A stretch of DNA of 54,347 nt from Planctomycetota bacterium (GCA_020057085.1 JAGVGO010000194.1:1-54347), one strand, 5' to 3'. Positions 71 through 23,452 are shown, numbered from the stretch's first letter. A program made the numbers and translations. The notes: a model not told the origin generated them from the letters alone.

Positions 71-2473
71 TTATCCCCCCGAAGTGTTAGATACGCCCTC
101 TTTTAGCGCCGCGAGAATTTTCTCCGGCGTGATCGGCAGGTCTCTTATCCTGATGCCGACAGCATTGTAGATGGCATTGGCAATGGCCGGTGCGGTGGGG
201 ACAAGGCCCGGTTCGCCGACACCCTTGGCTCCCCATGGCCCAAAGCTATCGTGCGTTTCGATAAATTCCAGTTCGATGGGAAAATTCATTTCCTGGATAG
301 TCGGAATCTTGTAGTCGCGGAAGTCGGGGTTCAAGATTTTGCCGTCTTTACAAAGAATCTCTTCGTAGAGGGCATAGCCGATTCCCTGCGCCAGCGCACC
401 ATACATCTGTCCCTTCAATGCCTGCGGATTCAGTACCTTGCCCACATCATGAACCGCAATGAGGCGCAAAATCTTCACCTCGCCGGTGTCGGTATCTACC
501 TCCACTTCCACCCCCTGGCAACCATAGGCATAGGTGGCCGATAGATTGCCATAGCCCTTGCCCCAATCAGCCATTTCATTGGGTGGATCATAAAATACTT
601 GCGTGCCCAACATGCTACCTTGCTCACGGAAATGGATGGCGCGGATGAGAATACCCAATTCTATCCGCAGCCAGGGTTCGCGCGGTGCATCTTTGATAAA
701 TACATAGCCATCTGCGAGATCGAAGTGTTCTTTTTGTGAGGCCTCTTCGACATCGAATTGCGGCGGCCGGTAGCCGGAATTTTTCTTGCGGAACGTGTCC
801 AGATTTTTCGCTGCGAGTGCGGGAAATAGCGTCTCGGCCTGCTCAAACAGTTTACCTCTGAGTTCTTTAGCCGCAAGAATGGCAGCATTACAGGCCATAA
901 ACGCGCCTCTGCTCGCATGCGTACCTACGTCCCACGGGCAAGTGGCTGTATCTACCTGATTGATGAACACCTTCTCTGGCCGGACGCCCAGAGCTTCGGC
1001 AAGCGCCAGTGCCAGTACCGAGTGCAGCCCCTGTCCCATTTCTACCCCACCATGAGAAGCATAGACATTGCCAAAATCGTCCAGTTTCAAAATCATGCCG
1101 GTGCCGTCGGATTTGTAGATTCTGGCGCCGCCGCCCACATGAAACAAGGACGCCAGGCCTACACCCCGGCATTTGCCCTGGCTACGCGCCTGCTGCCAGT
1201 CCAGTTTGCGGGCGACCGAGGTAATGCATTCCTTAAGTCCACAGGTAGTGACTTTGAGCCCCATGGGCGTAGTTTCACCAGGCTCGTTGCAGTTGATAAT
1301 CCTGAATTCATAAGGATCTATGCCTGCCGCTTCGGCGAGTTCGTCGCTATTGTTTTCGAGTGCCCAGGTAAGTTCCGGATTGCCGTAGCCGCGCATGGCC
1401 TGGGCATACGTGTTGTTCGTATAATAGAGGTCGGCATGGAAGTAAACATTGGGCACGCGGTAGAGTGAAGTGGCCGGCAGCATCATCACACTGGGAAAAG
1501 TAGCGCCCCAGGAGGTGTAGGCACCGTTGTCCTGGACAATTTCCACCTCTCTGAAAGTCAGCCTGCCATTCGCATCGCAGCCTTGTGTGATCTTTATTTG
1601 CGAAGACTGGCGAGGGGACAGATAGGCAAACTCTTCCTCCCGCTCATAGACGATCTTGATCGCTCTGCCGGTTCTGTGCGCCAGCAGGATGGCAATATAC
1701 TCATAGGCATGGGTATCGAGCCCTGAGCCGAAAGCGCCACCCAGCGTAGGCACGATCACTCGCACGTTTTTATCGTTCAGGCCAAGACAAGGGAGAAAAT
1801 TGATAAAATCTCGTTGTGCGAGAAACGGAATCTGCGTCTTGGTCCAGATCGTGAGGTTATCGTTCATATCGAACTCGGCGATAGAGCCGGCCGTTCCCAT
1901 GCAGCTTTGCTGAATCAATGGCGTGGAAAATTCCCCCGACACGATATGTCTGGCAGCTCTTTTGCCGGCGTCCATATCGCCTGAAGCGTGGTGGAAGAGT
2001 ACAGGCACTTTGTTGTCTTTGCGGGGCTGCCCTTGTGGGTCCAGTTCATGAATGAGAATGGCGTTCTCTTGTCTGGCTTCTTCCGGCGAAAAGATACCGG
2101 GGAGAGGTTCATAAGACACTTCGATCAGCCTGAGCGCCTCTTCGGCAATTTCTGGGGAAATGGCCGCGACAGCCGCCACTTCGTCTCTGAATTGTCGTAC
2201 TTTGTCTTTCTTCAGCACGAAATTGTCGCGTAAAAAGCCAAACCGCATCTCAGGCGTGTTGTAGGCCGTGACGACGGCCACAACGCCGGGCAGTTTTTCG
2301 GCTTTGCTCGTTTCGATGTGCAAAATCCTGGCATGGGCATGGGCGCTAAATTTGATCTTACCATAGAGCATACCCGGCCGCGTAAGATCATGGATATAAT
2401 GCGCCTTCCCCGCAGCCTTGTCTGCGCTATCTGGGCGGGAGACTTTTTGCCCAATATGATGTAATTCACTCAC
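71..2473 (-). CDS. Xanthine dehydrogenase family protein, molybdopterin-binding subunit
   Basis: 800-aa ORF with molybdenum hydroxylase motifs ([41 protein letters not shown]); overlaps the 2Fe-2S subunit gene. Confidence 0.93.
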
Positions 2474-2949
2474 GGCTTACCCCTTAACTGACTAGCTGCC
2501 GCTTTGACAGATTCTATGATTTGTACATAACCTGTGCAACGACAGAGATTGCCCAGCAAAGCCGTGCGGATTTCTTCTTCGCTGGGGTTATTTTTTTTGT
2601 CCAGCAGTGCTTTGGTTGACATAATCATGCCAGGCGTGCAGAAACCGCACTGAATGCCACCGTTTTCGATAAAAGCCTTCTGTATTACCGAGAGCTTGTT
2701 TTCTGCTCCTTGGAGTCCTTCGATGGTGGTAAGCGATTTGCCTTCTACCTCAAAAGCAGGATACAGACAAGAGTTTACGGCTCTGCCGTCTACGATCACG
2801 GTGCAAGCTCCACATTCTCCGGCGCCGCAGCCTTCTTTAGTGCCGGTAAGTCCGAGCTGGCTGCGGATGATATCTAAAAGCCGCATATGACTGGCGACTG
2901 TTTCTGTCACTTGCTTGCCGTTGATCGTGAAACTAATTTCTCTTGTCAT
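2470..2949 (-). CDS. (2Fe-2S)-binding subunit of xanthine dehydrogenase family
   Basis: [11 protein letters not shown] plant-type ferredoxin motif and [11 protein letters not shown] / GNLCRCTGY second cluster motif. Confidence 0.95.
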
Positions 2950-3799
2950 GTCTCGCTCCGTCCACTAATTTTTGTATGCCATGCTTTACATACACCCCGA
3001 CCAGATGGCGTCTGTAATCGGCGGTAGAGCGGACATCGCTGATGGGCGATACACTTTCCATAGCGACTTTTTGCGCTTCCCGCACCTTTTCTTCGGTAAT
3101 TTCCGCATTTTCCAAAACTTTCTCCACCTCCCTGAGCCGAAGCGGTACAGTAGCCACCGAGCCGGCGGCAAGACGCGCCTTTTTACAATGATTGCCTTCC
3201 AGTTCCAGCAGTACCGCCACGCTCGCCAGAGCGAGATCCAACTGCACCCTGCCTTTTTTCATAGCGATGGCTTTTACAGTGGAATTGGGCTTATCCATGC
3301 GTAACTCCACTAAAATTTCTTGCGGCGCGAGGCAGCTCTCGCCCGGCCCTACAAAAAAATTGTGCAGGGGGATTTCTCTGGTATGTTGAACGCTGCATAC
3401 CACAGCTCTTGCCTCCAGCACGAGAAGAGCGGGCGCGGTATCGGCACATGGCGAACAATTGCAGAGGTTACCGCCAATCGTGCCGACATTGCGGATTTGC
3501 ACGCTACCTATCGTTTTGGCCGCCTGCACCAGCACCGGCAGTACACTCTCCAGTTGTGGATGTTCGATCAACTCCGTCATGGTAGTAGCGGCGCCGATAC
3601 GGATATCTTCGCCGCTGCTAATGTTTTTGAGTTCAGGAACCGCGCGCAGAGAAATCAGTGCCTCCGGAGCGAGAATGCCTTTCCTGACCCGCACCATTAT
3701 GTCGGTTCCCCCGGCAATGTAGCGCGCCCCCGGGATTTTTTCTCTCAGTTCCCAAATCTCGTTTAAAGACTGTGGCTTGTAATATTCAAAATGGCTCAT
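2933..3799 (-). CDS. FAD-binding subunit of xanthine dehydrogenase family
   Basis: [15 protein letters not shown] and [20 protein letters not shown] motifs of the CO-dehydrogenase/XDH FAD subunit. Confidence 0.93.
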
Positions 3800-7209: not shown

Positions 7210-8619
7210 GACGACAGGATGAAAGATTTTATGTGTGAGCGCATTTTGCTTGGGATAACGGAGTCAACTTGCCCGGTTTGTAAAGCTCTCGTTCCCACCA
7301 AGGTGTTGGGGATGCACGGTAATGTTTACTTCGAGAAATTTTGCCCGGCGCATGGCACGAGTCTCGTTTTTGTGCGCGCCGATGCAGAAGAGTATCTGCG
7401 CACTTTGCACTACGTAAAACCCGCCACGAAACCTTTTATAAACCACGGCAGAGACGATCTGCCATGCCCGACAGGATGCGGTTTTTGTGATCGCCACGAG
7501 CAACACCTGTGCCTGCCGATTATCGAAATCACTCAGGGGTGCGACATGGCATGTCCGATATGCCTGGTAGATGCGAAAGGCAGCGACAGGCTGAGTGTGG
7601 AAGAGTTTTCGTTCATTTTAGACGAGCTGCTCAAGGCCGAACCGCAGATTGATGTTCTCAACCTGTCTGGCGGCGAACCTTTGACCCACCCTGATCTCCT
7701 GGCTTTGCTCGACATCGCGCTCAAACGCCCAGAAATCGTCCGCGTCAGCATTTCCACCAACGGCCTGCGTTTGCTCGAAGAACCACGTTTGCTTGCCGAA
7801 CTCAAAGCCAGGAACGTGGTTGTCTCGCTGCAATTCGACGGCAGCGAAGATCGCATTTACCGGACACTGCGCGGCAGGCCACTTGGCAAAGAAAAACAAA
7901 GCATGCTTGACAAACTGTCGGCTTACGACATTACCACCTCTCTCACCATGACGGTCGCCCGCAATGTGAATGAGGATGCTGTCGGGTCGGTCATCGAGAT
8001 GCTCTTCACTGTCCCCAATATCGTCAGTTGTATGCTGCAACCCATGGTGTATGGCGGCAGAGGCCGCAATTTGCCTGTGCCTGAGAAGCGGCTGACGATA
8101 CCGGACATTGCAAAATTATTGGCTGCTAGCGGCAAAGTGGACGCCGGCGACTTCACCCCGCTTCCCTGCTGCCATCCGGCCTGTTTCAGCCTGGCTTTTT
8201 ATTTGCTGCTCAACGACGGCGGACATGTGTCGCTGGGGAAAATCCTGGATGCTCCCAGGCGACTCGATGCCATTGCCAACAAAGCGATATTCGGCCTCGA
8301 CGAACAGGGACACGAAGAAATCAAAACCCTGATCTACGATCTCTGGTCCGGGCCTGCGGCGGCAAACCCGGAATCAGAGGCGGTACTCAAAACGGTGCGT
8401 ACACTGCTCAAGGAAATCAGCAAAGGCTCCAGCTTTGACCCGAGAGCCGCTTTCTCGGTGAGCGAAAGAAAGATCAAGTCGGTTTTTATCCATGCTTTCC
8501 AGGATGTCGACACTTTCGATCTCGCCAGAGTGCGGCGATGCTGCAACGGCTACCCGCAGAAGGACGGCCGCGTCATTCCGGCATGTGTACAGAATGTGCT
8601 GAGGAGAAGAAATGCATAA
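7210..8619 (+). CDS. Radical SAM protein, tetraether lipid synthase (Tes/MJ0619)-like
   Basis: N-terminal CPVCKALVPTKV..NVYFEKFCPAHG, CPTGCGFCDRH, then radical SAM CDMACPIC and LSGGEPLTHPDL; C-terminus RRCCNGYPQKDGRVIPACVQNV. Start chosen at ATGAAAGATTTTATG rather than the longer ORF from 6850. Confidence 0.8.
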   Translation, partial: DDRMKDFMCERILLGITESTCPVCKALVPTKVLGMHGNVYFEKFCPAHGTSLVFVRADAEEYLRTLHYVKPATKPFINHGRDDLPCPTGCGFCDRHEQHLCLPIIEITQGCDMACPICLVDAKGSDRLSVEEFSFILDELLKAEPQIDVLNLSGGEPLTHPDLLALLDIALKRPEIVRVSISTNGLRLLEEPRLLAELKARNVVVSLQFDGSEDRIYRTLRGRPLGKEKQSMLDKLSAYDITTSLTMTVARNVNEDAVGSVIEMLFTVPNIVSCMLQPMVYGGRGRNLPVPEKRLTIPDIAKLLAASGKVDAGDFTPLPCCHPACFSLAFYLLLNDGGHVSLGKILDAPRRLDAIANKAIFGLDEQGHEEIKTLIYDLWSGPAAANPESEAVLKTVRTLLKEISKGSSFDPRAAFSVSERKIKSVFIHAFQDVDTFDLARVRRCCNGYPQKDGRVIPACVQNVLRRRNA

Positions 8620-9811
8620 TTTGCTAAACGGCTATCGTCTCAAAGATTTGCTGCATTATAAGTCGCTCTATAACAGGCATCTCCGGCGTAACAGGGCGTG
8701 GGCCAAAGAATTTCGTAAGGCTCAACAGCAAAAGAGTTTTTCCCTGCCTTATCCAGTGCTGCTCCAGGTGGTACCGACAGAGACCTGCAATCTGTCTTGC
8801 AAAATGTGCAACCAATGGGGTGATGTGGGCTATTACAAAGGGCACAGCAAAGATGTTGCCTCCATGCCCATAGAGAACCTGCTCCACCTTCTCAAATCGT
8901 CGGAGAATTATGACTGTTTGCTCAGTATCTATGGCGGCGAGCCGTTTACCTACAAGCATATGGCTGCACTGTTGGACTATCTTATAGCAAGCGGGCGGGA
9001 CGTGGTCTTTACCACCAATGGTACGCTGATGGAGCCTTACATCTCGCAGTTGGGAAAACTCAAGAACGCCGTCTATATGGTCTCCGTTGACGGCGCCAAG
9101 GAGACCAACGACCGTATTCGCGGCCAAGGTGTCTATGAGCGTGTCAAACATAGTCTGACGCTTCTGCATGAAAGCTGTCTTGACCAGACTGGTATCAGAC
9201 CTCTGGTGTTTATGAACTGTTGCATCTCTAACTCTTTTGTGCCAGAAGACATCTTGCAGGCCCGCGAGGCGGCGCGTGAGCTTGGTATGGTCAACATCAA
9301 TTATGAACTGCTGTGGTTTTTCACCGAGGAAATGGGGCGGCGCTATGAAGACGAATTTGTGCAAGAATTTGGCTTTGCAGCGTCGAACTGCTGGCGTGGT
9401 GCCTGCTGTGAACTGGGTGCATTTGATGCGGAAGGGGTAGGTAAGGCTGTCGCGCGCGTCATGAACGACTTCGCCTGTAGGCTTTTTGTACCCAATGTCA
9501 GTGTCATTCCACGGATGGCTACGACTGCCGACAGATTCAGCAGATATTTCCGTGATGCCAACTACTCTTTTGCCCGTGAGCGGTGTCTCTATCCAGCCTA
9601 TTCCTGCCGTATCCAATCCACTGGCGACATGATTTTCTGCCCTGGATTACCTGACGTTATTGCCGGTAATGTGTTGCAAAAAGGGTTTCATAAAACCTTC
9701 AACAGTGCGGCTGCCCAGCATCTTCGCCGGTTCCTCAGTGAAAAACGTTTCACTATTTGTAACCGCTGCTGTGGTTTGTACCTGACTTATGATGTGGATA
9801 GGCTGGTTTAG
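8612..9811 (+). CDS. Radical SAM protein with SPASM/twitch-like C-terminus
   Basis: TCNLSCKMCNQW, SIYGGEPFTY; C-terminal Cys-rich CLYPAYSC..CPGLPD..ICNRCCGLY. Overlaps the preceding gene by 8 bp. Confidence 0.85.
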   Translation: MHNLLNGYRLKDLLHYKSLYNRHLRRNRAWAKEFRKAQQQKSFSLPYPVLLQVVPTETCNLSCKMCNQWGDVGYYKGHSKDVASMPIENLLHLLKSSENYDCLLSIYGGEPFTYKHMAALLDYLIASGRDVVFTTNGTLMEPYISQLGKLKNAVYMVSVDGAKETNDRIRGQGVYERVKHSLTLLHESCLDQTGIRPLVFMNCCISNSFVPEDILQAREAARELGMVNINYELLWFFTEEMGRRYEDEFVQEFGFAASNCWRGACCELGAFDAEGVGKAVARVMNDFACRLFVPNVSVIPRMATTADRFSRYFRDANYSFARERCLYPAYSCRIQSTGDMIFCPGLPDVIAGNVLQKGFHKTFNSAAAQHLRRFLSEKRFTICNRCCGLYLTYDVDRLV

Positions 9812-9813
9812 CT

Positions 9814-10650
9814 ATGTTTACAAGAGACCCAAAAGAAGAAGTAGCAGAATTTTATAAAAATGAATGTTATCTGGCACAGATCGCCGGCGAGGAAGTGCCT
9901 CACCTGCATCAGGGATACTGGTATCCGGATACCGATGTACACGATCTGAAGACCGCACAGTACAATTATTTACAAGAGTTGGTGAAAAACATACCGAGGC
10001 CCAAAGGCGATGTGATTCTGGATCTGGGGTGCGGCTATGGAGCGGCCGCCATCTGGCTCGCCACGCATTTCGCTTGTCGGGTATATGCAATCGATCTGTT
10101 GGAGTCGCACATTGCCAAAGCAAAAACGGCAATACAAAAATACGGTTTACAGGATAAAATTGAACTGCATTTGGCAGACATCTTAGACACCGATTTCTTG
10201 CCGGACACCTTTGCTCATGTGCTTGCCGTAGAGTCCTTATATCATATCGCACAAAAAGAAAAAGTCTTTGCTAAAGTGCAAAAATCACTGAAAAAAGGGG
10301 GGCTTTTTGCCATTGCCGATTATTTATTGTATGCGCCATGTTCCTGGCTATCGGCTAAAATAGCCCCGCTAGCTTCCGGTGGCAGCTATATCGGATACGC
10401 AAGTGAATATTCCGACCTCTTGCAGAAGTGTGGCTTTACCATTATTGGTATAGAAGACGTTACAGAGCAAACACTGCTCAAGACTTTTCTTTGTTCGCAA
10501 AGCGAAAATCATGACCATTTGCGCGACTATGTGCGTAAAAACCACGGTGTCGTCGCCAGTTTCATTATCCCCAGGATTTTTAAGGCGTGCATGGCCGGGC
10601 CTGCCAAAAAACATTGGGGGGTCAGCTTTATCTGGGCACGCAAAGATTAG
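9814..10650 (+). CDS. SAM-dependent methyltransferase (class I)
   Basis: VILDLGCGYGAAAIWLA motif I; small-molecule/lipid-type class I methyltransferase layout; begins 2 nt after the preceding gene. Confidence 0.85.
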   Translation: MFTRDPKEEVAEFYKNECYLAQIAGEEVPHLHQGYWYPDTDVHDLKTAQYNYLQELVKNIPRPKGDVILDLGCGYGAAAIWLATHFACRVYAIDLLESHIAKAKTAIQKYGLQDKIELHLADILDTDFLPDTFAHVLAVESLYHIAQKEKVFAKVQKSLKKGGLFAIADYLLYAPCSWLSAKIAPLASGGSYIGYASEYSDLLQKCGFTIIGIEDVTEQTLLKTFLCSQSENHDHLRDYVRKNHGVVASFIIPRIFKACMAGPAKKHWGVSFIWARKD

Positions 10651-10691
10651 TTTGACAGCCGAAACCGTTTGAAAAAATTTAAGGAAGAAAC

Positions 10692-12089
10692 ATGAACGCT
10701 TTTTCCAAGTTGTATTATAAAACCACTTCGATGTGTCCTTTTTGCAAATCTCTGCTGCCAGGAGAAGTCGTGGCACGGGACAATCAGGTGTTCGTCACCC
10801 GCAATTGCCCTACGCATGGCAAAGTGGAAGGGCTGATTTGTTCAGATATGGAATGGTATGAAAATCTTGCTCGCTTCGACGTCACGCCCATCAAACCAGC
10901 CAAGTCCCAAACTGCGAGGGACAAAGGTTGCCCTGAAGATTGCGGGCTATGCCCTGCGCACAGGCAGATTGCCGGAACTGTGGCACTGGAAATTTCCAAT
11001 TTCTGCAACGCCGCCTGTCCGGTTTGCCTTGCAGACAATAAAGGGACTTTCGAGTTATCTGTCCGTGAAGTACAAGCGATTGTCAGCGATCTCTTGAAAC
11101 GCCAGCAAGTCGTTGATGCCTTTACCCTCTCCGGCGGCGAGCCGACAATCCATCCTCATCTCTTTGAGATAATAGAACTCCTGGAACGGGCGGGCATGTC
11201 GCGTATTGTCATTAACAGCAACGGGAAAAGAATTGCCGAGGATGATGCATTCTTAGATGAGATGGCCAGGCACCCCAAGGTGTATGTCTGTCTGCACATA
11301 GATGGGGCAAATTCCATAGCGACCAGAGGTGTGACTGCGGATACCCAGCAAAAAGCTCTGGCACGGCTTTGTCAGTGGAACATCAATGTTTCTCCTCTGA
11401 TCCTGGCTGTTAAGGATGTCAATGAGCACGAGCTGGGCACTCTTACCTTGCGCCTCCTGGCACAATCTCCCAGCGTCAAATCCGTTTTCCTTTCCATGAT
11501 GGCATCCTGTGGCACACGTGGCTCTCAATTCCCCTTTGATCCTCTGACACGCCTCACCATTCCTGCCGCTCTGGGAGCGATGGAAGCAGACACCAACGGT
11601 TTACTGAAAAAACACGATTTTATGCCGCTGCCCATGCCAAATCCCATGTGTGCCTCCATCGGCTATTTCATTGTGGATGGCGAGGAGGTAATCCCGCTCT
11701 TGCGGTTTATGGCAATAGAGCAGTTCATTGACCATATCAAGAATGCTCATTTCGCACGCGCCGAACATGAACTGGAAGATTTTCTCAAAGACACGCTAGA
11801 TGCCATCTATGCCAGCCCAGCCAAATATGAAAATGCGCCGCGCATTTTAAAAGCATTCAAGAATCTGTACACCCAGCTTTTTGAACGTGGCATAGCAGCC
11901 GACCAGCGCCAAAAGATAGTGGAAGAAAGAATCAAGACGGTGTTTCTCATGCAGTTCATGGATACATGGAGTTTCGATGCGGTGCGTTTGAGCAAATGCA
12001 GTTGCCAACATTTGCTACCGGGCAACAGGACTGTGCCGAGCTGCGGCTATTATGCGTACCATCGCAATTTAGATCCGCGGTTCGCTTAA
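10692..12089 (+). CDS. Second radical SAM protein, tetraether lipid synthase (Tes)-like
   Basis: MCPFCKSLLPGEVV..NCPTHG, CPEDCGLCPAHR, CNAACPVCLADNKG, LSGGEPTIHPHL; same architecture as the 7210-8619 protein. Confidence 0.8.
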   Translation: MNAFSKLYYKTTSMCPFCKSLLPGEVVARDNQVFVTRNCPTHGKVEGLICSDMEWYENLARFDVTPIKPAKSQTARDKGCPEDCGLCPAHRQIAGTVALEISNFCNAACPVCLADNKGTFELSVREVQAIVSDLLKRQQVVDAFTLSGGEPTIHPHLFEIIELLERAGMSRIVINSNGKRIAEDDAFLDEMARHPKVYVCLHIDGANSIATRGVTADTQQKALARLCQWNINVSPLILAVKDVNEHELGTLTLRLLAQSPSVKSVFLSMMASCGTRGSQFPFDPLTRLTIPAALGAMEADTNGLLKKHDFMPLPMPNPMCASIGYFIVDGEEVIPLLRFMAIEQFIDHIKNAHFARAEHELEDFLKDTLDAIYASPAKYENAPRILKAFKNLYTQLFERGIAADQRQKIVEERIKTVFLMQFMDTWSFDAVRLSKCSCQHLLPGNRTVPSCGYYAYHRNLDPRFA

Positions 12090-12099
12090 GGAAGAGTTC

Positions 12100-13161
12100 G
12101 TGCATTGTTTTTTCAAATATTTCCATCATTTGTGGGCGGAAAACTCGCGCCAATGGCAGCCCATGCTCGGTATTTATTACCTTACCTATGCCTGTAATTT
12201 TCGCTGCCCTTATTGCAGCGACGGCAAAAATGTTCCCTATTACCAACTGCCGGCCAAGATTTTGCATGGGACAGAAGTCATCGAGCTGCTGCGGCGGGTA
12301 CGCGCATATACGGATTTTTTGGTGATCACCGGTGGTGAACCGCTCTTGCACCCGGATTTCGCTTATGTCATGGAGCATTTACCTGCCTTACGTTTTAAGG
12401 GAGTGCTGCTCACCACGAATGCCTACTATCTCCACCGCTATCTGTCCGTAGTAGCCTCTGCTGTCAACTATCTCTTAGTCAGTGTGGATACTTTGCATCA
12501 TGGCAAGGCCGATGGCTGGTATAGCGTCGGGGAAGGCGTACTGAGCAAAATTTTAGAGAACATCACCACCGCTGCCGATTACCCGGGCCGGCGCTATGAA
12601 ATTATCATCTCAGCAGTTGCTACTCCAGGCAATATCGAAGACTTATACGGCGTTTACCACTATGCTAAGGAGAGAGGTTTTCGTTTTGCGGTTGCCCCGC
12701 AACTGATAGGAGTCAATGTGCATCCGGACCTTATTGACAATACCCAATATAAAAGGTTCTATGACTTTCTCATGGCGGAGAAAAAACAGGGCTATGCGAT
12801 CAATATCAATGGCAGCCTCCTCTATTTGAAGCACATGAGAAATTTTAGCAAATTTTCTTGCCGTCCTTTTACGCTGGTCACGGTAGCACCTACGGGCGAT
12901 GTCTATTATCCGTGCCTGGAAATCGGCCATGTTGCAGGCAATCTTCTCGAAACGCCTGATTTACATCAGATTCGCCGGAACGGGCTGCGCGTTTTCGGCC
13001 CCCAGCCCAAGTGCGAGGCATCTTGCCAGTCTGCGTGTGCTTTGGGTTTTAGTTTGCCTCTCGGCCATCCTCTTTCCATGCTGCACGAGTGCTGTCTTGT
13101 GGCCAAAGGCTGGGGGCGCAAAATTTTTACGAAAAAATCTTCCCCAGGGCAACAGGTTTAG
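12100..13161 (+). CDS. Radical SAM protein with SPASM-like C-terminus
   Basis: YACNFRCPYCSDG, ITGGEPLLHPDF; C-terminal CRPFTLVTVAPTGDVYYPCLEIGHVAGNL...CEASCQSACAL. Confidence 0.85.
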   Translation: MHCFFKYFHHLWAENSRQWQPMLGIYYLTYACNFRCPYCSDGKNVPYYQLPAKILHGTEVIELLRRVRAYTDFLVITGGEPLLHPDFAYVMEHLPALRFKGVLLTTNAYYLHRYLSVVASAVNYLLVSVDTLHHGKADGWYSVGEGVLSKILENITTAADYPGRRYEIIISAVATPGNIEDLYGVYHYAKERGFRFAVAPQLIGVNVHPDLIDNTQYKRFYDFLMAEKKQGYAININGSLLYLKHMRNFSKFSCRPFTLVTVAPTGDVYYPCLEIGHVAGNLLETPDLHQIRRNGLRVFGPQPKCEASCQSACALGFSLPLGHPLSMLHECCLVAKGWGRKIFTKKSSPGQQV

Positions 13162-14164
13162 TCATCTGATAATAATCGAAAACATTACCTAGCTTCTGCG
13201 TGCCGTGCCGGATGGTTTCGATTGAACCGCGGCAACTGGTCCAGCAGGCGCGGCAATCCTGGCGCTTTTGTTGTACTTCCAGTTTCCTGACAATTTCCTG
13301 CATATCATCGGTAAGGATATTACCGACGGCTTCGTCCAGGCGGTCTATGCAGCGGCTGACACTGCCATTACTATCAATATTGCATAAATTCTTGCCCGCA
13401 TAGCAAGGCCCTATTCCTTGTTCGCGTACGGCTTGCGAAAATTTGCCAATATAACCGCGCAGAGAGACGAAATGCTTGTATTTAGCCTTGAGGCTTAACA
13501 GATGAGGGCTGATATCCTTGGGTATAACCCGCGTTTCTTTTTTGCCCCGCATGTTGCTGTAAAGGGTGACCATATAGGTAATGCCCATTTCCTGGCACAG
13601 ACGTAGCAGAGGTTCTACCTCTTCCAGGTTGTCGTCCATGATCACGGAAATCATGTTGACTCGCTGGTAAGGGTCTCTTCTGTTTTCCTGTAAAATACGA
13701 AGACCACGCATGGCTCGTGCAAAAGCTCCCGGCATGCCCCGTTGTTTATCGTGTTTATCGCTGCTGGCATAGTCTACGGAGATACTGATTTCCTCCATGC
13801 CGGCGGCAAAGAGTGTTCTTGCTATTTCGGGCGTCACAAACCAGCCATTGCAAATCATCACCGGAAAATGATAGCGGGCCAGGGCACGCACTATCTCTAC
13901 CAAGTCTTTGTGGATAAGCGGCTCACCTCCGCCAATGGAAATGATCTGCGGGCCAACCTGGTTCAATTTTTCGGCAATGACCTCTATTTGCGCCACCGAC
14001 AGCCTGGGCAATTCTTTATATTCTTGGTGCCAGAAGTCACAAATGTTGCATTTGAAATTACAATCGTATAAAAGTTGCAAATTCGTGTGGATCAAACGGT
14101 TCTTCAGGAAAGAATCCATATACCGCATTCTTTTGCAGCTTTTTTGCAGATTATAGACCATCAT
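13127..14164 (-). CDS. Radical SAM protein with SPASM-like C-terminus
   Basis: YDCNFKCNICDFW, ISIGGGEPLIHKDL; C-terminal CYAGKNLCNIDSNGSVSRCID...CRACWTSCRG. Start uncertain (14164 or a nearby downstream ATG). 3' end overlaps the opposite-strand radical SAM gene by 35 bp. Confidence 0.85.
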   Translation of the reverse strand: MMVYNLQKSCKRMRYMDSFLKNRLIHTNLQLLYDCNFKCNICDFWHQEYKELPRLSVAQIEVIAEKLNQVGPQIISIGGGEPLIHKDLVEIVRALARYHFPVMICNGWFVTPEIARTLFAAGMEEISISVDYASSDKHDKQRGMPGAFARAMRGLRILQENRRDPYQRVNMISVIMDDNLEEVEPLLRLCQEMGITYMVTLYSNMRGKKETRVIPKDISPHLLSLKAKYKHFVSLRGYIGKFSQAVREQGIGPCYAGKNLCNIDSNGSVSRCIDRLDEAVGNILTDDMQEIVRKLEVQQKRQDCRACWTSCRGSIETIRHGTQKLGNVFDYYQMTKPVALGKIFS

Positions 14165-14195
14165 GCCTGCCTTTCTGTTGCTGGAGGAGGAAAAA

Positions 14196-14825
14196 ATGAA
14201 TTGCTCTATTTTTGCGCAAAAGAGTGAGCCGGTCAAGGAAAAATTGGCCACAGGCGAAGCCAGGCCACCGAGATGGTGGGGATTTTTCCCGCTGGGTATC
14301 CTGATTTGGCACAGTTGCAACACCATCTTCTACGAAAATCCTCAATACTTGCTGTTTGTTTGTTATACGGCAAATCTGCTGGTCGCTATCGGCATCATTT
14401 GCCGTTGGCGCCTGATTTTTGGCATGGGCTTTCTGTGGACTGTGGCCGCTCTCCCGCTTTTCATCTACGACAATAGTTACGAGAGCGTCTCTTCCACGCT
14501 TGCCGCTATTCTTTGCCGCTGCACCTGCATGCTGTTCCATGTGAGCGGCTTTATCGTTGGCTTGCTGGTATTGAAATTCTACCGCCTGCCCAAATTCACA
14601 TGGCTGGCTGCGCTGGGACTGGGTCTTGCTCTGCAAGTGCTGGCGAGGTCATTCAGCGACGAGTCACTCAACATCAATGCCGCGTTCAGGGTCTACCAGG
14701 GCTGGGAAGGAGTGTTCAGCGACTACACGGTCTACACGATAACGATGCTGCTATCCTTTGGCATCAGTTTCATCTTGCTGCAATGGGGCAGTAATCGCTT
14801 GTTCGGCAGGAAAGAGCGGAAATAG
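14196..14825 (+). CDS. Integral membrane protein of unknown function
   Basis: Several hydrophobic segments (FLLFVCYTANLLVAIGII, FLWTVAALPLFIY, GFIVGLLVL, TITMLLSFGISFILL); strong SD GGAGGAGG before ATG 14196. Confidence 0.65.
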   Translation: MNCSIFAQKSEPVKEKLATGEARPPRWWGFFPLGILIWHSCNTIFYENPQYLLFVCYTANLLVAIGIICRWRLIFGMGFLWTVAALPLFIYDNSYESVSSTLAAILCRCTCMLFHVSGFIVGLLVLKFYRLPKFTWLAALGLGLALQVLARSFSDESLNINAAFRVYQGWEGVFSDYTVYTITMLLSFGISFILLQWGSNRLFGRKERK

Positions 14826-15170: not shown

Positions 15171-18100
15171 CTACAGTTTTTCTCTCACATGCTGGATTCT
15201 TTCCTTCACCTTTTTGATCATCTCCGTGTCGTTCAGGTCTTCATAGAACGGCAGTGATTTTTCGAGATACCACAGAGCGCGCGCGTAATTGCGATGGTTG
15301 TAGTGGAGAATAGCAATATGGTTGTAGGCGTTGGCCATACCCAGTTTGTCGCTGACCTTTTTGCAAATCTTTAAATTCTTGGCATAATATTCAAGAGCCT
15401 TTTCGTACTCATTCTTGGCATCGTAGATACAGCCGATATTATGATAGGAAGTGGCAAGACCTGGCCAATCCTGCGCTTCTTCTTGAATTTTCACGCTCTT
15501 TTCGAAATAGTTGAGCGCCTCGTAGAAATTGCCACGTTCTTTGTAAATCAGCCCCATCTTGTTGTAAATAAGGGCAAGGGCGGAAATATCCTTGATTTCT
15601 TCCAACATGCGCGCACATTCCTGGTAAGACGCAAGCGCCTCGGTATTCTCACCGCGCAGGTTGTAGATGAGCGCCTCGGTACTCTTGATGTGAGCAAGGC
15701 CACGTTTGTCATTGAGTTCGCCGTAAATCTTGTTGCTTTCTTCGAGGATTTGCAGCGCCGCCACAAAATCATTCCTGTATGCCAGCACGCCTGCGATCTT
15801 GTCGCACGCCTCGGCCATGCCAGCTTTTCGGTTGCCGGCGCGTCGCAGTTTGAGGCTTTCCTGATAGGCGTTATATGCCTCACTCAATTCGCCACGTTTA
15901 TGGTGGAGCATACCCAGGTGGAATAGGATATTACCTATGCCCGCCTGGTCGCCGCGCCGTTCGTAAATGCCGCGTGCCTTGCCGAAATATTCTTTGGCTT
16001 TCTCGCTGCGGTTCTGTTCCATCTCCAGCAAACCGAATTGTTCATAGCAGTAGGCCATCTGCGCTTCATTACCTAATTCGGTCAGGATATCGAGAGATTT
16101 GTAGAAATAGCGAAATGCCTCGTCGTTCTTGTTAGCTTCGCGACACACGCAGCCGAGAGCAAGATAGGACTCTGCCAGCGACTCCTGGTCATCCAGGCTT
16201 TCAAAAATTTCGAGGCAATTGATGAATGTGGAAATCGCTTTACGTGCGTCGCCGCTATCTGCCAATAGTTGTGCAAGATTTTTCTGACACGCAGCCGCCT
16301 CGCGGCTCTCTCCGCTTTCTCGCAAGAGTGTTACCGCATCTTCCAGGAGCGCGATAGCCTGTTGTTTGTCGCCGGTCTGTTGCAAAATATGGGCCATGCT
16401 GGCGAGTGATTTGCCTGTCTTGTGTTCCTGCCCTATGTCCTCCAAGATTTTCTTCTGCCGGGTAAAATGTTGCAAGGCTTTATCCTTGTTGCCCTGGTGG
16501 TAGGCAAGGTGTCCCAATTCTCCGTACAAGTCGGCTTCGCGTGCGGTGCCACTGATTTTTTGTTGATTGGCCAGCGATTTTTGCAAAAAACTTTCGGCTC
16601 TTTCCCAGTCTCCCAGTTCACGATGTGCCGTACACAGCAGATTGTACACCTCCGCTTCTTTGTCGGCGTTTTCGATTTTTTTGAGCAGTTTGTAACTTTT
16701 TTTGTACAACTTGCTCGCCTGCTTGTTGTCTTTGGCTTTTTGAAAACTGCAACCGGCAAGAATCATAAAGACGACCGGCTGGTAAGGGAAATCCATCGTC
16801 GTTTCGTTCTGCGACAATCTTTCCCAGAGCGCACCCGCCGATTTGAAGTTCTCTTCGCGGTACAGATAAGAGGCAAACTGATTCAGTGCCATGACCACGA
16901 CCGGCGTGCGAATATTCAGCAGAAGCTGAATGAGAGCGTTGATAGTACTGTCTTCGCCCGAGGTGCGCGAACTGATCTGTTCCTTCATCAGCAAAAGGTC
17001 GTACAACAACTGGGCAACCGCCACGTGCGATTGGTCCGTTTTTTTGATGATTTCTACCGCTCGTTCCACATACTGTTTCTCGATGAGGCGCAGCAGGGCA
17101 AAATAAAGGACGCCCCACAAAGTCAGGTTGCCGTTGACAAGATCGCTCAGATATTTTCCCAGCATTTCATCGGTATGCTTGCCGGCTAAAGCCACGGTGC
17201 GGTAGATGAGATAATCTTGCAAAATTTGTGACGGGAAATGCAACACGGTGTCGTCTTTGTCGTTCAAGTATTTACAGGCATAGCGTTCGAGAAAGCCTTC
17301 TGCGCTCAACGCGGAGAGTCCATTAAAAGCATGGAAACCCAATATTTCTTTGATGAGATGGGTGTCGTCGCTGTCGAGCAACTGCTCGATCGTGATAGGA
17401 AGTGTGCGTGATTTGAGTACCACTTCCATGAAACGATCGACAAATTCGCGCCGCTCTTTGCAGAACGAAATGTGGTTCATGACGAACCCTTCCAGCGCGT
17501 CGCGGATGCCAAGATATTTGGGAATTTCACGGTTACGCAGCGACAGCAGAAAAATTTTGGCGAGGGCCGGGCAGCGCAGCATACCGCGCATATGGCGTGG
17601 AATCGAGTTGAAAGATGGTGCAATGTTCCCTACATTGGCCGACAGCGTAGCGTATACATCTTTGAGTTCGCTACGTGCAAATTGCCCCAAGCGAAAATAA
17701 GGTCGCGCCGAATCGAGTATGGGGCAAGAGCCATCCACCGGCATAATCAAATCGTTTGCCAGATATTTCTGCCAGAACTGGTAATGGGTTTCCGGCAACG
17801 CAAGAATGATTTTGCAGGTGGCACGGTATTGCTTGGCAAAATTGTGCAAACCGAGGAAAAACTCCTCCGGGCTGTTGCTGTTTTCGGCGCCGTCCAAAAT
17901 GATAGTCCATTTTTTATGTGTATCGCCAGCCACCGTCATTGCTTCTTCCCACGCCGCTTTGCCACCCAATGCCAGAGCGAGATCCTTGGCCAGGTCGACA
18001 CCGCGGCTGTTGAACACTCGCCACAGAAATACCACTTCGCCCTGGCTCAACCATTTGCGTGCCATCTGCGCCAGCAACACCGTTTTGCCCACGCCCTTCG

Positions 18101-19214
18101 GCCCGATGAGCAGAAAGATAGGTGCTGTCTTTTGGCTGATAAAATAGTCGAGCACTTGCTCCGCTTCTTTGCGCGGGTAGTAGTTCTGGAGAATTTTGGC
18201 CTCTTTCAGCTCATGCAGGGTTGCTTCGGTGATTTGAAAAGCTCGTTCCCAAATCTCTTTCAGTGACTTGCTTGGCTCCTGTATGGCTACGCGCGCGTTC
18301 TGCTGAAGTTGTATATACGCCTGGAACGGCTCACGCAAAGGAATTTTATGGAAAGAGCCCGTATAGTAAAGACGGCGCACGCCGCGACCGAAGAAACAGA
18401 AGAACTCCCATGGATTTACCTTTTCCTCGCGCATGCAATAGTAGCATTCCTGGTACACCACCCAAGGGTGCAGCGGGCGAAACATTTTACTTTCAGGTTC
18501 CCACAGCCATACTTGCCCTGGCGTCAATTTTTGTGCGTTATCGAGCGATACTTTGTTGCTGCTGCTGAGATTGGCGCCAAGGAGCGATCTGGCGACCACT
18601 TTGCCCTTCTCGCCGGCGACATTTTCGATGTGGTAAAGCGGATACTGCGGCAAAAACCTGAGTTCTTGCAAAACTTTCTGCAACGAAGTCAGTGCATACT
18701 GCGCATACATTTTTTGTTCGTCACTATTCATCACGGCGAACGTCGTCAGCAAACTTTGCCGAACTTCGTGCAAGTTGGCCAAATGTCCGATTTCGCGTTT
18801 CTTGGCTCGCTGCTCGCTGATCTCCTGCAAGTGGATGCCTTTGTTTTGCTCTATTCTGCTCAACGCTTCAGCGATTTTACGCCACAGGGAAGATGAATCG
18901 GTTTGTATGTGTGCCGCTTGCTGGACGAACTCAAACCAGTGATCGAATTGCAGACCTCCCAATTGTGTGAGAGATGGTGGCGTACTCTTTTTCTCGTCAG
19001 AGCGATAGCAATATGCAAGAGCAAGTACGCCAAGGTAGTGTACGAGTTGTTCGTAGGCGGCGATGATCGCTATGAGTTGGGCAGGCGGGTCTTGTTCGTC
19101 GTTGATCTTTTGGCAAGCATAGGCAATGGGGAAAGGATAGTGGGTGGCAACATGCACCAACAACGAGTTGGGTTCCGCTTCCAAATTTTTTACGGGAATT
19201 TTGGCAGTATCCAT
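15171..19214 (-). CDS. STAND-type NTPase with C-terminal TPR array (1347 aa)
   Basis: Walker A LLIGPKGVGKT, Walker B-like WTIILDGAEN; long C-terminal TPR array (repeated A..Y...L......G....A.....); helical N-terminal domain (YPFPIAYACQKI...LVHYLGVLALAYCYR). Confidence 0.8.
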   Translation of the reverse strand: MDTAKIPVKNLEAEPNSLLVHVATHYPFPIAYACQKINDEQDPPAQLIAIIAAYEQLVHYLGVLALAYCYRSDEKKSTPPSLTQLGGLQFDHWFEFVQQAAHIQTDSSSLWRKIAEALSRIEQNKGIHLQEISEQRAKKREIGHLANLHEVRQSLLTTFAVMNSDEQKMYAQYALTSLQKVLQELRFLPQYPLYHIENVAGEKGKVVARSLLGANLSSSNKVSLDNAQKLTPGQVWLWEPESKMFRPLHPWVVYQECYYCMREEKVNPWEFFCFFGRGVRRLYYTGSFHKIPLREPFQAYIQLQQNARVAIQEPSKSLKEIWERAFQITEATLHELKEAKILQNYYPRKEAEQVLDYFISQKTAPIFLLIGPKGVGKTVLLAQMARKWLSQGEVVFLWRVFNSRGVDLAKDLALALGGKAAWEEAMTVAGDTHKKWTIILDGAENSNSPEEFFLGLHNFAKQYRATCKIILALPETHYQFWQKYLANDLIMPVDGSCPILDSARPYFRLGQFARSELKDVYATLSANVGNIAPSFNSIPRHMRGMLRCPALAKIFLLSLRNREIPKYLGIRDALEGFVMNHISFCKERREFVDRFMEVVLKSRTLPITIEQLLDSDDTHLIKEILGFHAFNGLSALSAEGFLERYACKYLNDKDDTVLHFPSQILQDYLIYRTVALAGKHTDEMLGKYLSDLVNGNLTLWGVLYFALLRLIEKQYVERAVEIIKKTDQSHVAVAQLLYDLLLMKEQISSRTSGEDSTINALIQLLLNIRTPVVVMALNQFASYLYREENFKSAGALWERLSQNETTMDFPYQPVVFMILAGCSFQKAKDNKQASKLYKKSYKLLKKIENADKEAEVYNLLCTAHRELGDWERAESFLQKSLANQQKISGTAREADLYGELGHLAYHQGNKDKALQHFTRQKKILEDIGQEHKTGKSLASMAHILQQTGDKQQAIALLEDAVTLLRESGESREAAACQKNLAQLLADSGDARKAISTFINCLEIFESLDDQESLAESYLALGCVCREANKNDEAFRYFYKSLDILTELGNEAQMAYCYEQFGLLEMEQNRSEKAKEYFGKARGIYERRGDQAGIGNILFHLGMLHHKRGELSEAYNAYQESLKLRRAGNRKAGMAEACDKIAGVLAYRNDFVAALQILEESNKIYGELNDKRGLAHIKSTEALIYNLRGENTEALASYQECARMLEEIKDISALALIYNKMGLIYKERGNFYEALNYFEKSVKIQEEAQDWPGLATSYHNIGCIYDAKNEYEKALEYYAKNLKICKKVSDKLGMANAYNHIAILHYNHRNYARALWYLEKSLPFYEDLNDTEMIKKVKERIQHVREKL

Positions 19215-20826: not shown

Positions 20827-21237
20827 CTATTCGTTGCGATTGCAGGGAACCGCCTTGTAGCCGTAGCAAAGGGCACCTTGTAAACCGTTCTTCTGGATAC
20901 GGCGGAACTCCAGGCGCAGTTTTTGCCCGGCTTGTAATTTCTCCGGTACCACATCGACGATCTGACAGGTCAGTTTGACACCGTCTCCTACGTCTATAAT
21001 GCCCAAAGCATAAGGTGTCTGGTCAGTGAATGCAGCGGGACCGACACGAATCACGGTAAAGGTAAGAAGCGTGCCTTCCCATGGCAGGGACACTTTTTCA
21101 AACTCCCGGTGCTTGCATTTGTCGCAGATCAAACGAGGAGGAAAAAATACCTTGCCACATTTCTTGCATTTGGCCGCTTCCAGACGATAGCGCTGGGGAA
21201 ATTCGCGCCATATTTTCGATGGGAACATAGTTAGCAT
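20827..21237 (-). CDS. Zn-ribbon/OB-fold (DUF35) acyl-CoA-associated protein
   Basis: [42 protein letters not shown]. Confidence 0.9.
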
Positions 21238-22388
21238 GCCTCCAAAATATGGACTACACTGCTTGCCGCGGTCCCTCCCATGTTTTGGGCAAGACCGATT
21301 TTGGCGCCGGAAACCTGTCTGGGTCCGGCTTCCTGGCGAAGCTGCTCCACCAGTTCGATGATCTGGGCAATGCCGGTGGCTCCCACCGGGTGTCCCTTGG
21401 ATTTCAAACCGCCCGAAGTGTTGACCGGCAGTTCGCCGCCAAGTCTTGTCATACCTTGGGCTGCGGCTTTACCGGCTTTGCCTTCGGCAAATAGCCCGAG
21501 CGATTCGAGAGCACAGATTTCGGCGATGGTGAAACAGTCGTGCACTTCGACCAGATTGACCTGCTCCAGCTTGATTTTCGCCATTTGCAGCGCCTTCTGC
21601 GCCGCCCTGGCCGTTGATTTGAAGAAAGTCAGGCTGTCGCGCTGGTGCAAGGCTATGGTGTCGGAAGCCTGGCCGCTGCCGATTACCTTGATCGGCCGTT
21701 TTTTACCGAGTTTGGCGGCTTCGCTGAGCGGGCACAGGACGACGGCGGCGCCACCATCCGTTACCGGCGAGCAGTCGAGAAGCCGTAATGGATCGGCGAT
21801 CATGGTCGAATGCATGACCTGTTCGAGTGTCACTTCTTTGGGAAACTGGGCACGCGGGTTTTTGGCTCCATGCGCGTGGTTTTTTACGGCTACGGCAGCC
21901 AGGTCTTCGCGGGACAGCTTGTATTTGTCCATGTAGGCGCGTGCAATCAGTGCATAAAGGCCTGGGAAAGTGGCACCCTGGAACGACTCGTATTCCTGAT
22001 CGGCAGCCGTACCCAGGGCAAAAGTTGCGGCGCCTCCATCCACATCGGTCATCTTTTCTACGCCGCCGGCCAGAACAATGTCGGAAATTCCCGATGCCAC
22101 TTCAATGAACGCCTGGCGGAATGCCACCCCGCCCGAGGCGCAGGCAGACTCCACCCGTACGGCAGGAACGGGTGCGACACCCAGGTAGTCGGCCAGTAGT
22201 GCGCCGATGTGCTCCTGATCGACAAAGAGTCCACTGGACATACAGCCGACGTACATCGAATCTATATGATCCACCCCGCTGTCATCTATGGCAGCCAGTG
22301 CTGCTTCTACGAATATGTCACGTAAAGATTTTGCCCACAGTTCTCCCCACTTGGGCATTCCTACGCCTATGACGGCAACGTCGCGCAT
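21231..22388 (-). CDS. Acetyl-CoA acetyltransferase (archaeal-type thiolase)
   Basis: [18 protein letters not shown]..., [31 protein letters not shown]; start set at the internal Met after the non-coding-looking N-terminal extension. Confidence 0.9.
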
Positions 22389-22399
22389 CTCTGGTCTCC

Positions 22400-23452
22400 T
22401 TACTCTGACTCTTTTTTCAAAATTTTGCCACGGAACTTCGCATACATGCCATATTCCAGGTAGAACTTGCCATGATCCAATTGTTCCCTGGTCTTGGGAG
22501 CCTTGTCGCGGATTTTGCCAAGCTGCTCCGTCACGCGCCAGATGAAGGCATCGCTGCCCGCTCCTGAACCAAACGACACCATGAGGATTCTGTCCTTGGG
22601 TTTGGCTTTGTCGAGAATCGCAGTGAGTCCGATTGGAGAGGCTCCTGAGTAGGTGTTGCCGAGCGTGGGCGAGAGGAGTCCGTCTTCCCATTGCTCTTTT
22701 TTGAAACCCAGCTTCTGCCCAGCCATGACAGGGAACTTGCCGTTGGGCTGGTGAAACACCACATACTGGAAATCTTCGGGTTTGGCTTTGTTGCGTTCCA
22801 TGATGCCCTTGGCCGCAGACAGGACATGCTTGAAATAGGCAGGTTCGCCGGTAAAACGTCCGCCATGCGTGGGATAGTGTGCTCCTTCACGTCGCCAGAA
22901 ATCGGGCGTATCGGTCATGAAGGTGTAGCTGTCTTCGAGTTCTACGGCGATATTTTCAGTGCCAAAGATGTAGGCTGCCGCGCCTGCGGACGCAGAAAAT
23001 TCCAGCGCATCTCCCGGTGCTCCCTGGGACGTGTCGGCACCGATGGCAAGTCCATATTTGATCTTGCCGGAAGCGACAAGACTAGAACAGACAAACATGG
23101 CTTCCGTACCTGCCTTGCAGGCAAACTCAAAGTTTACGCAATGGGTATTGGTGCTGGCGCCAATGGCCTCGGCCACTACCGTCCCACTAGGTTTGACTGC
23201 GTATGGGTGAGATTCCGAACCGATATAAAGGGCGCCAATTTCCCTGGCATCCACACCGGACCTGCGCAAGGCGTAACGGCTCGACTCCACCGACATGGTG
23301 ATTACATACTGATCGGGTCCTGGTACCGATTTTTCATACAGCATGAGGCCTTCTTTGTAGCTTTCGGCATCGAGTCCCCATACCTTGGCGATTTCTTCCA
23401 CTTTGATTCGATACCTGGGAACATAGGCGCCATAACCAACTATTCCTACCAT
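22400..23452 (-). CDS. Hydroxymethylglutaryl-CoA synthase, archaeal type
   Basis: [62 protein letters not shown]. Confidence 0.92.

What the first reader, a model, noticed from the sequence alone, without database searches (positions are those of the whole stretch)
7210..14825. Multi-radical-SAM cluster with two Tes-like enzymes, a methyltransferase and a membrane protein
Five tightly packed + strand genes (8-bp overlap, 2-nt, 41-nt and 10-nt gaps) alternate Tes-like rSAM, SPASM-like rSAM, SAM methyltransferase, Tes-like rSAM, SPASM-like rSAM. A sixth gene (another SPASM-like rSAM) converges and overlaps by 35 bp, and a polytopic membrane protein diverges from it. Established: the Tes family (archaeal MJ0619-type) makes C-C bonds between lipid tails and has many uncharacterised bacterial relatives; SPASM-like proteins modify peptides or small molecules. 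Inference: this is a biosynthetic pathway, plausibly for modified or membrane-spanning lipids or an unusual small molecule. I do not recognise this gene combination.
Basis: partly seen in the sequence, partly recalled or inferred. Interest (0 to 1): 0.75.

Follow-up and report, generated by a model that had tools for sequence, protein, structure and literature searches.

The report
Paired Tes-like enzymes, likely lipid pathway
Five packed genes plus two neighbours belong to an apparently undescribed gene cluster, scattered over many bacterial phyla, that pairs its own fatty-acid-building enzymes with two relatives of the archaeal enzyme that welds lipid tails together, so these bacteria probably make an unusual coupled or ring-closed lipid.

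Summary
Both Tes-like proteins are real relatives of archaeal tetraether synthase GDGT-MAS (E 2e-46 and 6e-45; the model of the first matches 7TOM at TM 0.84). Both fall well below the curated cut-offs for Tes and TrsS. With a third copy (TesB) on another contig of the same genome they form their own clade: TesA (7219-8619), TesB and TesC (10692-12089). In 72/72 TesA and 68/68 TesB the three C-terminal cysteines (probable [Fe4S4]C ligands) are kept, but the labile Met439 is His.

The neighbourhood is conserved. In 34 of 56 longer relative loci, TesA/TesB sit with at least three of KAS, CLF, FabA-like dehydratase, ACP and nitroreductase; none of 20 loci of other Tes-like genes has these. The window's own genome carries the same genes on contigs C109 and C256. 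The fifth and sixth radical SAM genes and the membrane protein recur in these clusters; SP1 and the methyltransferase do not.

Best reading: a dedicated acyl chain is built on its own ACP, coupled or cyclised by TesA/TesB, and probably placed in membrane lipid. Lipid pathway: well supported. C-C coupling: inferred. Membrane-spanning product: unproven. Sulfur incorporation is a serious rival.

The parts
7219..8619 (+). TesA: Tes-like radical SAM, 466 aa (rubredoxin-type Zn ribbon, N-terminal auxiliary cluster, RS core, C-terminal auxiliary cluster with His in place of Met439)
   Evidence: PF04055 + PF23545; 7tol E 2e-46; model TM 0.84 to 7TOM; 56-58% relatives; ligands
8612..9811 (+). SP1: radical SAM/SPASM protein, 399 aa; no orthologue found in the sampled relatives
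   Evidence: PF04055 61 bits, PF13186 27.5 bits; absent from other clusters; best matches in other genomes of the phylum 27-29% identity
9814..10650 (+). MT: class I SAM methyltransferase, 278 aa, specificity unknown
   Evidence: Methyltransf_25 67.5 bits; best solved relatives are small-molecule methyltransferases such as MitM; not found in other clusters
10692..12089 (+). TesC: second Tes-like radical SAM, 465 aa; keeps Met439
   Evidence: PF04055 + PF23545; 7tol E 6e-45; 54% relatives next to TesA/TesB in L075 and L093; own clade 100*; ligands
12100..13161 (+). rS5: radical SAM protein, 353 aa, conserved C-terminal Cys set; orthologues 50-56% in TesA/TesB clusters
   Evidence: PF04055 52.6 bits
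13127..14326 (-). SP6: radical SAM/SPASM protein (likely start 14161/14164 or lower); orthologues 52-61% in TesA/TesB clusters
   Evidence: PF04055 80.7, PF13186 23.8 bits. Same convergent layout with rS5 in L085 and L130
14163..14825 (+). MEM: polytopic membrane protein, 220 aa, recurrent in the clusters; distant TMEM164-like fold suspected; near-invariant Cys67 and His126
   Evidence: 21 homologues in cluster loci; AF2 pLDDT 86.5; TMEM164 hints

Best explanation
The window holds part of a split specialised-lipid pathway. A dedicated type II fatty-acid/polyketide-like set (KAS with CLF, two dehydratases, SDR ketoreductase, nitroreductase, ACP; in this genome on contigs C256 and C109) builds a particular acyl chain on its own ACP. 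TesA and TesB then act like GDGT-MAS. A 5'-deoxyadenosyl radical takes H from an unactivated chain carbon, the carbon radical is parked on a sulfide of the C-terminal [4Fe-4S] cluster (three Cys plus His instead of Met439), and a second radical attacks it to form a C-C bond that couples two chains or closes a ring. TesC, rS5 and SP6 make further radical modifications, MT may methylate, and MEM may transfer the finished acyl chain into membrane lipid. Shown: gene content, homology, fold, ligand conservation, conserved co-occurrence. Inferred: the coupling reaction, order of steps, split of labour, MEM function, and that the three contigs work together.
For: TesA/TesC similarity to GDGT-MAS over the whole length, including the cofactor motifs; model TM 0.84 to 7TOM against at most about 0.39 for other listed chains. 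FAS modules in 34/56 relative loci of 12 kb or more and in none of 20 loci of other Tes-like genes. At least two Tes-like genes in 48/56 such loci. Own-genome FAS genes on C256 (FabA, CLF, KAS) and C109 (nitroreductase, ACP, SDR, DH2, TesB); the nearest relative by TesA, G037, shows the same set over two contigs. KAS keeps Cys-His-His, CLF lacks the Cys. MEM, a hexapeptide transferase (14 loci) and a PEMT-like protein (9 loci) recur. The chemistry of GDGT-MAS and its Fe-S-bound intermediate are established for MJ0619 (PMC9433317).
Against: No product is known. TesA/TesB lie far from true Tes (205 and 191 bits against a cut-off of 450) and have His at the Met439 position, so the reaction may differ. 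In the window contig itself the FAS genes are absent; linkage to C109/C256 rests on the genome bin (59% complete) and on synteny elsewhere. 22 of 56 longer loci do not show three FAS modules, and many contigs are short. MEM as an acyltransferase is a weak hint (Pfam best E 0.001, 3 of 22 members; Foldseek E 4, TM 0.50).
Confidence: 0.5

Rival explanations
1. Sulfur chemistry: TesA/TesB use the C-terminal Fe-S cluster as sulfur source or anchor, as biotin synthase and lipoyl synthase do, and make thioether or thiolated acyl chains instead of C-C bonds.
For: GDGT-MAS itself forms a C-S(cluster) intermediate, and its authors note odd cluster ligands in S-C-forming enzymes (PMC9433317). TesA/TesB have an invariant His as putative odd ligand. 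Rhodanese-domain membrane proteins recur in 12 cluster loci and a protein with a cysteine-desulfurase-like sequence in 4; G037 has an Aminotran_5-rhodanese fusion near TesA.
Against: Rhodanese/desulfurase genes can also serve Fe-S assembly; they are absent from most clusters and were not seen in the window. No cluster motif beyond the GDGT-MAS set was seen.
Confidence: 0.18
2. The cluster makes classic membrane-spanning lipids (diabolic-acid or brGDGT-like tail-to-tail dimers of ordinary membrane fatty acids), TesA/TesB being the bacterial Tes.
For: Fold and cofactors of GDGT-MAS; bacterial Tes homologues have been proposed for brGDGTs (PMC8941075).
Against: Dedicated KAS/CLF/ACP would not be needed for ordinary fatty acids. 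Bona fide Tes (576 bits) exists separately in planctomycetes (L051, L055), with G037 carrying both. TesA/TesB are far below the Tes cut-off and come as a pair.
Confidence: 0.14
3. A ladderane-type pathway: polyunsaturated acyl chains made by a special FASII are cyclised by radical SAM enzymes, as proposed for anammox bacteria.
For: FASII plus several radical SAM genes, a methyltransferase and a divergent FabF paralogue resemble the anammox/Desulfotalea clusters (PMC2649909).
Against: 27 anammox-like genomes have no full-length Tes-family match (best 80 bits, generic RS core only, against 365-707 bits in G000/G037). Phytoene-desaturase-like genes, typical there, were not noticed among recurring neighbours. 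The host's own look-alike of the anammox cluster is a different contig, C120.
Confidence: 0.08
4. The two Tes-like proteins are TrsS-type proteins working with the neighbouring methyltransferase (a Trs/DVU_1556-like redox system) or pterin methylases, unrelated to lipids.
For: TrsS is the best or second NCBIfam hit (256 and 223 bits) and the MT resembles DVU_1556-family MT (59.6 bits).
Against: All far below cut-offs (490, 155). Many TrsS-like singles have lost the C-terminal cluster cysteines that TesA/B/C all keep. The MT is not conserved in the clusters, FAS genes are. The pterin role of MJ0619 could not be corroborated (PMC9433317).
Confidence: 0.04

Closest known systems
GDGT-MAS / tetraether synthase Tes (MJ0619, PDB 7TOL/7TOM; NF045702)
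   Same: Full-length fold (TM 0.84), rubredoxin-type Zn ribbon, N-terminal cluster C-x3-C-x2-C-x2-H, CX3CX2C, and three C-terminal cysteines aligned with MJ C338/C455/C470
   Different: About 25% identity in the structural match; 205/191/228 bits (TesA/TesB/TesC) against cut-off 450; TesA/TesB have His for Met439; occur as a bacterial pair with a dedicated FASII set
TrsS radical SAM (seleno)protein (NF045646)
   Same: Same broad rSAM family with HMPTM ribbon; best NCBIfam hit for TesA (256 bits)
   Different: Below cut-off 490; many TrsS-like singles lack the C-terminal cluster cysteines and have no FAS neighbours
Anammox/Desulfotalea FASII clusters proposed for ladderanes or PUFA (Rattray 2009, PMC2649909)
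   Same: FASII with divergent FabF paralogue, radical SAM enzymes and methyltransferase in one cluster
   Different: No Tes-family proteins in 27 anammox-like genomes; phytoene-desaturase-like genes there, not noted here
Bacterial membrane-spanning lipid synthase Mss (literature)
   Same: Enzyme said to share the catalytic architecture of Tes and to couple fatty acyl tails (PMC13274423)
   Different: Thermotoga maritima, a diabolic-acid producer (own knowledge), has no PF23545 protein, so its Mss is not of this domain type; Mss sequence itself not held
TMEM164 acyltransferase (PF14808, PDB 9lw1) for MEM
   Same: Small polytopic membrane protein; highest TM-score among listed PDB matches (0.50); near-invariant Cys and His
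   Different: Sequence relation marginal (best E 0.001); the human enzyme's catalytic residues are recalled, not checked

Membership tests
Tetraether synthase Tes / GDGT-MAS | NCBIfam NF045702 score at or above 450 bits | tested here: not met
   TesA 204.8, TesC 227.8, TesB 191.3 bits; control true Tes in L051/L055 576 bits
Tetraether synthase Tes / GDGT-MAS | Cysteine/histidine ligands of rubredoxin site, N-terminal cluster, RS cluster and three C-terminal cysteines | tested here: met
   C9, C12, C33, C73, C77, C80, H83, C98, C102, C105, C338, C455, C470 essentially invariant in TesA (72), TesB (68), TesC (3); H36 is sometimes Cys or Asp. Assignment of C338/C455/C470 as [Fe4S4]C ligands is inferred from conservation
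Tetraether synthase Tes / GDGT-MAS | Labile Met439 (said to be fully conserved in 1000 archaeal homologues) | tested here: not met
   His in 72/72 TesA and 68/68 TesB; Met in 3/3 TesC
Tetraether synthase Tes / GDGT-MAS | Couples lipid tails through a Csp3-Csp3 bond | not testable with these tools
   Needs enzyme assay or lipidomics
TrsS | NF045646 score at or above 490 bits | tested here: not met
   TesA 255.7, TesC 223.1, TesB 179 bits
TrsS | Accompanied by DVU_1556-family methyltransferase (NF045667, cut-off 155) | tested here: not met
   MT 59.6 bits. That TrsS travels with this MT is own knowledge
HMPTM-type Zn ribbon proteins (PF23545) | PF23545 at or above 27 bits | tested here: met
   44.1 and 55 bits; exactly three in the genome: TesA, TesC, TesB
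Anammox ladderane-type cluster | Shared Tes-family rSAM with anammox genomes | tested here: not met
   27 anammox-like genomes, best 80 bits, RS core only; anammox identity inferred from HZS_alpha ORFs of about 800-840 aa
Mss (bacterial membrane-spanning lipid synthase) | Sequence orthology to Mss | tested here: inconclusive
   Mss sequence not held; T. maritima has no PF23545 match
SPASM radical SAM | PF13186 over cut-off 21.5 | tested here: met
   SP1 27.5, SP6 23.8 bits; not met for rS5
TMEM164 acyltransferase (MEM) | PF14808 over cut-off 25 | tested here: not met
   Best member E 0.001; L112 member 13 bits; fold hint only

The most novel reading that the evidence does not exclude
A multi-phylum, so far undescribed bacterial pathway in which a paired Tes-like radical SAM system (TesA/TesB, with a His-ligated auxiliary Fe-S cluster) couples or cyclises acyl chains built by its own KAS/CLF FASII, yielding a new class of bacterial lipids, present even in cultured Sorangium cellulosum.
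Probability: 0.4. Interest if true: 0.87.

Novelty: new variant of a known kind. Interest (0 to 1): 0.7.

Why it matters
Bacterial Tes homologues are being read as hints of membrane-spanning lipids (for example in planctomycetes of anoxic waters, PMC11868695). This work separates a large subset, TesA/TesB/TesC, from true Tes by tree, by a simple residue rule for TesA/TesB (His for Met439) and by their FASII neighbours, so such surveys can avoid miscounting. It also names a cultured host (Sorangium cellulosum So ce26) in which the product could be looked for directly, and offers a natural His variant of the Fe-S cluster that holds the radical intermediate in GDGT-MAS.

Tried and rejected
TrsS/DVU_1556 system: scores far below cut-offs, cluster cysteines differ. 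Anammox ladderane cluster: no Tes-family proteins in 27 anammox-like genomes. Heme b/d1-type role for SP6: 100 bits against a cut-off of 500. Gms (GMGT synthase) for SP6: Gms homologues are longer than 420 aa with an N-terminal helical domain (PMC11186832), SP6 homologues are about 340 aa; sequences not compared. SP1 and MT as core members: no counterparts in other clusters. Mis-binned contig: FliF on the same contig is nearest to same-family G003 (52%) and same-order G005 (46%), so the contig fits the host. Sequence search of PDB with the MEM profile: nothing; BFVD hits to baculovirus proteins have E above 0.1 and no function. The iterated TesC profile drifted and labels many myxobacterial TesA proteins as TesC; subfamilies are therefore taken from the tree. 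Papers describing the cluster: none found in the searches made.

Full report
OBSERVATION. The gene layout is as described: 7219-8619, 8612-9811, 9814-10650, 10692-12089 and 12100-13161 on the + strand, then 13127-14326 on the - strand, and a membrane ORF at 14163-14825 (+). The only correction is the first start: 7210 is GAC, and the in-frame ATG is at 7219. Pfam gives Radical_SAM in genes 1, 2, 4, 5 and 6, the HMPTM zinc ribbon in genes 1 and 4, SPASM in genes 2 and 6 (not 5), and a class I methyltransferase for gene 3. Gene 7 has no confident family.

THE TES-LIKE PROTEINS. By sequence, genes 1 and 4 match GDGT-MAS (7tol) with E 2e-46 and 6e-45. NCBIfam places them below both nearest curated families: TrsS 256/223 bits (cut-off 490) and Tes 205/228 bits (cut-off 450). 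The host genome has exactly three proteins with the HMPTM ribbon: these two and one on contig C109. A maximum-likelihood tree (quick mode, SH-aLRT support only) puts them in three subfamilies of one clade (99*): TesA (gene 1), TesB (C109) and TesC (gene 4; 54% relatives in L075 and L093). The clade is apart from true Tes (MJ0619, and L051 and L055, which score 576 bits) and from single TrsS-like genes.

COFACTOR SITES. Aligned to MJ0619, the cysteine positions of the rubredoxin site, the N-terminal cluster and the radical SAM cluster are kept. The three C-terminal cysteines (MJ C338, C455, C470) are kept in 72/72 TesA, 68/68 TesB and 3/3 TesC, while many TrsS-like singles have lost them. I infer from conservation that these three ligate the C-terminal cluster; the paper text held names only Met439. 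Met439 is His in 72/72 TesA and 68/68 TesB, and Met in TesC and true Tes. In GDGT-MAS this cluster binds the substrate carbon as an intermediate and Met439 is dispensable (PMC9433317). The AF2 model of TesA matches 7TOM over its length (TM 0.84, E 1e-38; next chains about 0.39, core only).

CONSERVED NEIGHBOURHOOD. One genome-contig scan returned 79 loci, in Planctomycetota, Myxococcota, Riflebacteria, Verrucomicrobiota, Acidobacteriota, Elusimicrobiota and others, including cultured Sorangium cellulosum and Polyangium. Profile searches of the called ORFs cover 80 test loci (75 of the 79 after removing duplicates, plus five from the genome search). Of these, 64 have at least two Tes-like genes. 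Among the 56 of at least 12 kb, 48 do, and 34 have three or more of KAS, CLF, FabA-like dehydratase, ACP and nitroreductase. SDRs are in 51/56. Twenty loci of other Tes-like genes (12, 8) have none of these FAS modules. The test loci were chosen for TesA/TesB similarity, not for their neighbours, but they are related to one another, so the counts are not independent trials. KAS proteins keep Cys-His-His; CLF proteins lack the Cys. Recurring extras are rS5, SP6, MEM, class III aminotransferase, hexapeptide transferase (14 loci), rhodanese-membrane protein (12) and PEMT-like protein (9).

HOW THE WINDOW FITS. rS5 and SP6 of the window have 50-61% orthologues in such clusters; in L085 and L130 they are convergent as here. 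MEM has 21 homologues there. The FAS part lies on other contigs of the same genome: C256 with FabA-CLF-KAS, and C109 with nitroreductase-ACP-SDR-DH2-TesB at the contig end. G037 has the same order split over C185 and C166. SP1 and MT have no counterparts. In 392 sampled Planctomycetota genomes the A/B/C type (430 bits or more) is in 9, with a gap to the next class at 400 bits; the three same-family genomes lack it. So the cluster is sporadic, which suggests transfer or loss. The contig itself fits the host.

MEMBRANE PROTEIN. The AF2 model is good (pLDDT 86.5). No significant fold match exists; the highest TM-score among the listed PDB chains by far is TMEM164 (0.50, E 4), and 3 of 22 homologues hit Pfam TMEM164 weakly (best E 0.001). 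Cys67 and His126 are nearly invariant. A phospholipid acyltransferase role is a lead only.

INTERPRETATION. The evidence supports a dedicated acyl-lipid pathway with Tes-type radical enzymes. That TesA/TesB form C-C bonds is inference from homology. The His ligand, the rhodanese proteins and cysteine-desulfurase-like genes keep a sulfur-incorporation rival alive. A ladderane pathway is disfavoured because anammox-like genomes lack the family. Membrane-spanning lipids in the narrow sense are possible but do not explain the dedicated KAS/CLF/ACP.

LIMITS. Genome 59% complete; ORFs called mechanically; many short contigs; profile drift for the TesC label; literature restricted to open-licence papers; no lipid data.

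Noticed in passing
G000:C120:1-14000 (L152): Another cluster in the host genome with three radical SAM genes, two phytoene-desaturase-like FAD proteins, two KAS and an ACP, resembling the anammox/Desulfotalea FASII clusters of Rattray 2009 (names partly from reading the N-termini; not scanned with Pfam).
   Followed up: no
window 42187-43035: EcoRV-like restriction endonuclease (PF09233, E 4e-102) amid flagellar genes.
   Followed up: no
window 20827-23452: HMG-CoA-synthase/KASIII-like protein, thiolase and a small protein in a row, like the archaeal-type HMG-CoA synthase trio.
   Followed up: no
window 71-3799: Three-subunit molybdenum hydroxylase (xanthine dehydrogenase/CO dehydrogenase type) operon.
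   Followed up: no
L055 (G058:C58) 8553-11364: An SP6-like radical SAM gene (35%) stands divergently next to a bona fide Tes (576 bits) in another planctomycete, so SP6 may be linked to Tes chemistry more generally.
   Followed up: partly
L069 11395-13824, L078 18991-21369 (Riflebacteria/Ozemobacter): CLF and KAS appear fused in one 790-810 aa protein.
   Followed up: no
L042, L133, L134, L135 and parts of L094, L107: A second, smaller cluster type: TesB-like + SDR + class III aminotransferase + SDR, without KAS nearby (Polyangium and others).
   Followed up: no
G037 (L051, L039, L050): One genome carries both a true Tes and the TesA/TesB cluster; its record is titled Candidatus Kuenenia stuttgartiensis (isolate FI88_62_9), yet it lies in a different family (f34) from the anammox-like genomes (f43, f74, f93), so a mislabel is suspected.
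   Followed up: partly
window 15171-19214: Very long TPR-like protein with a P-loop sequence (1347 aa), apparently unrelated to the cluster.
   Followed up: no
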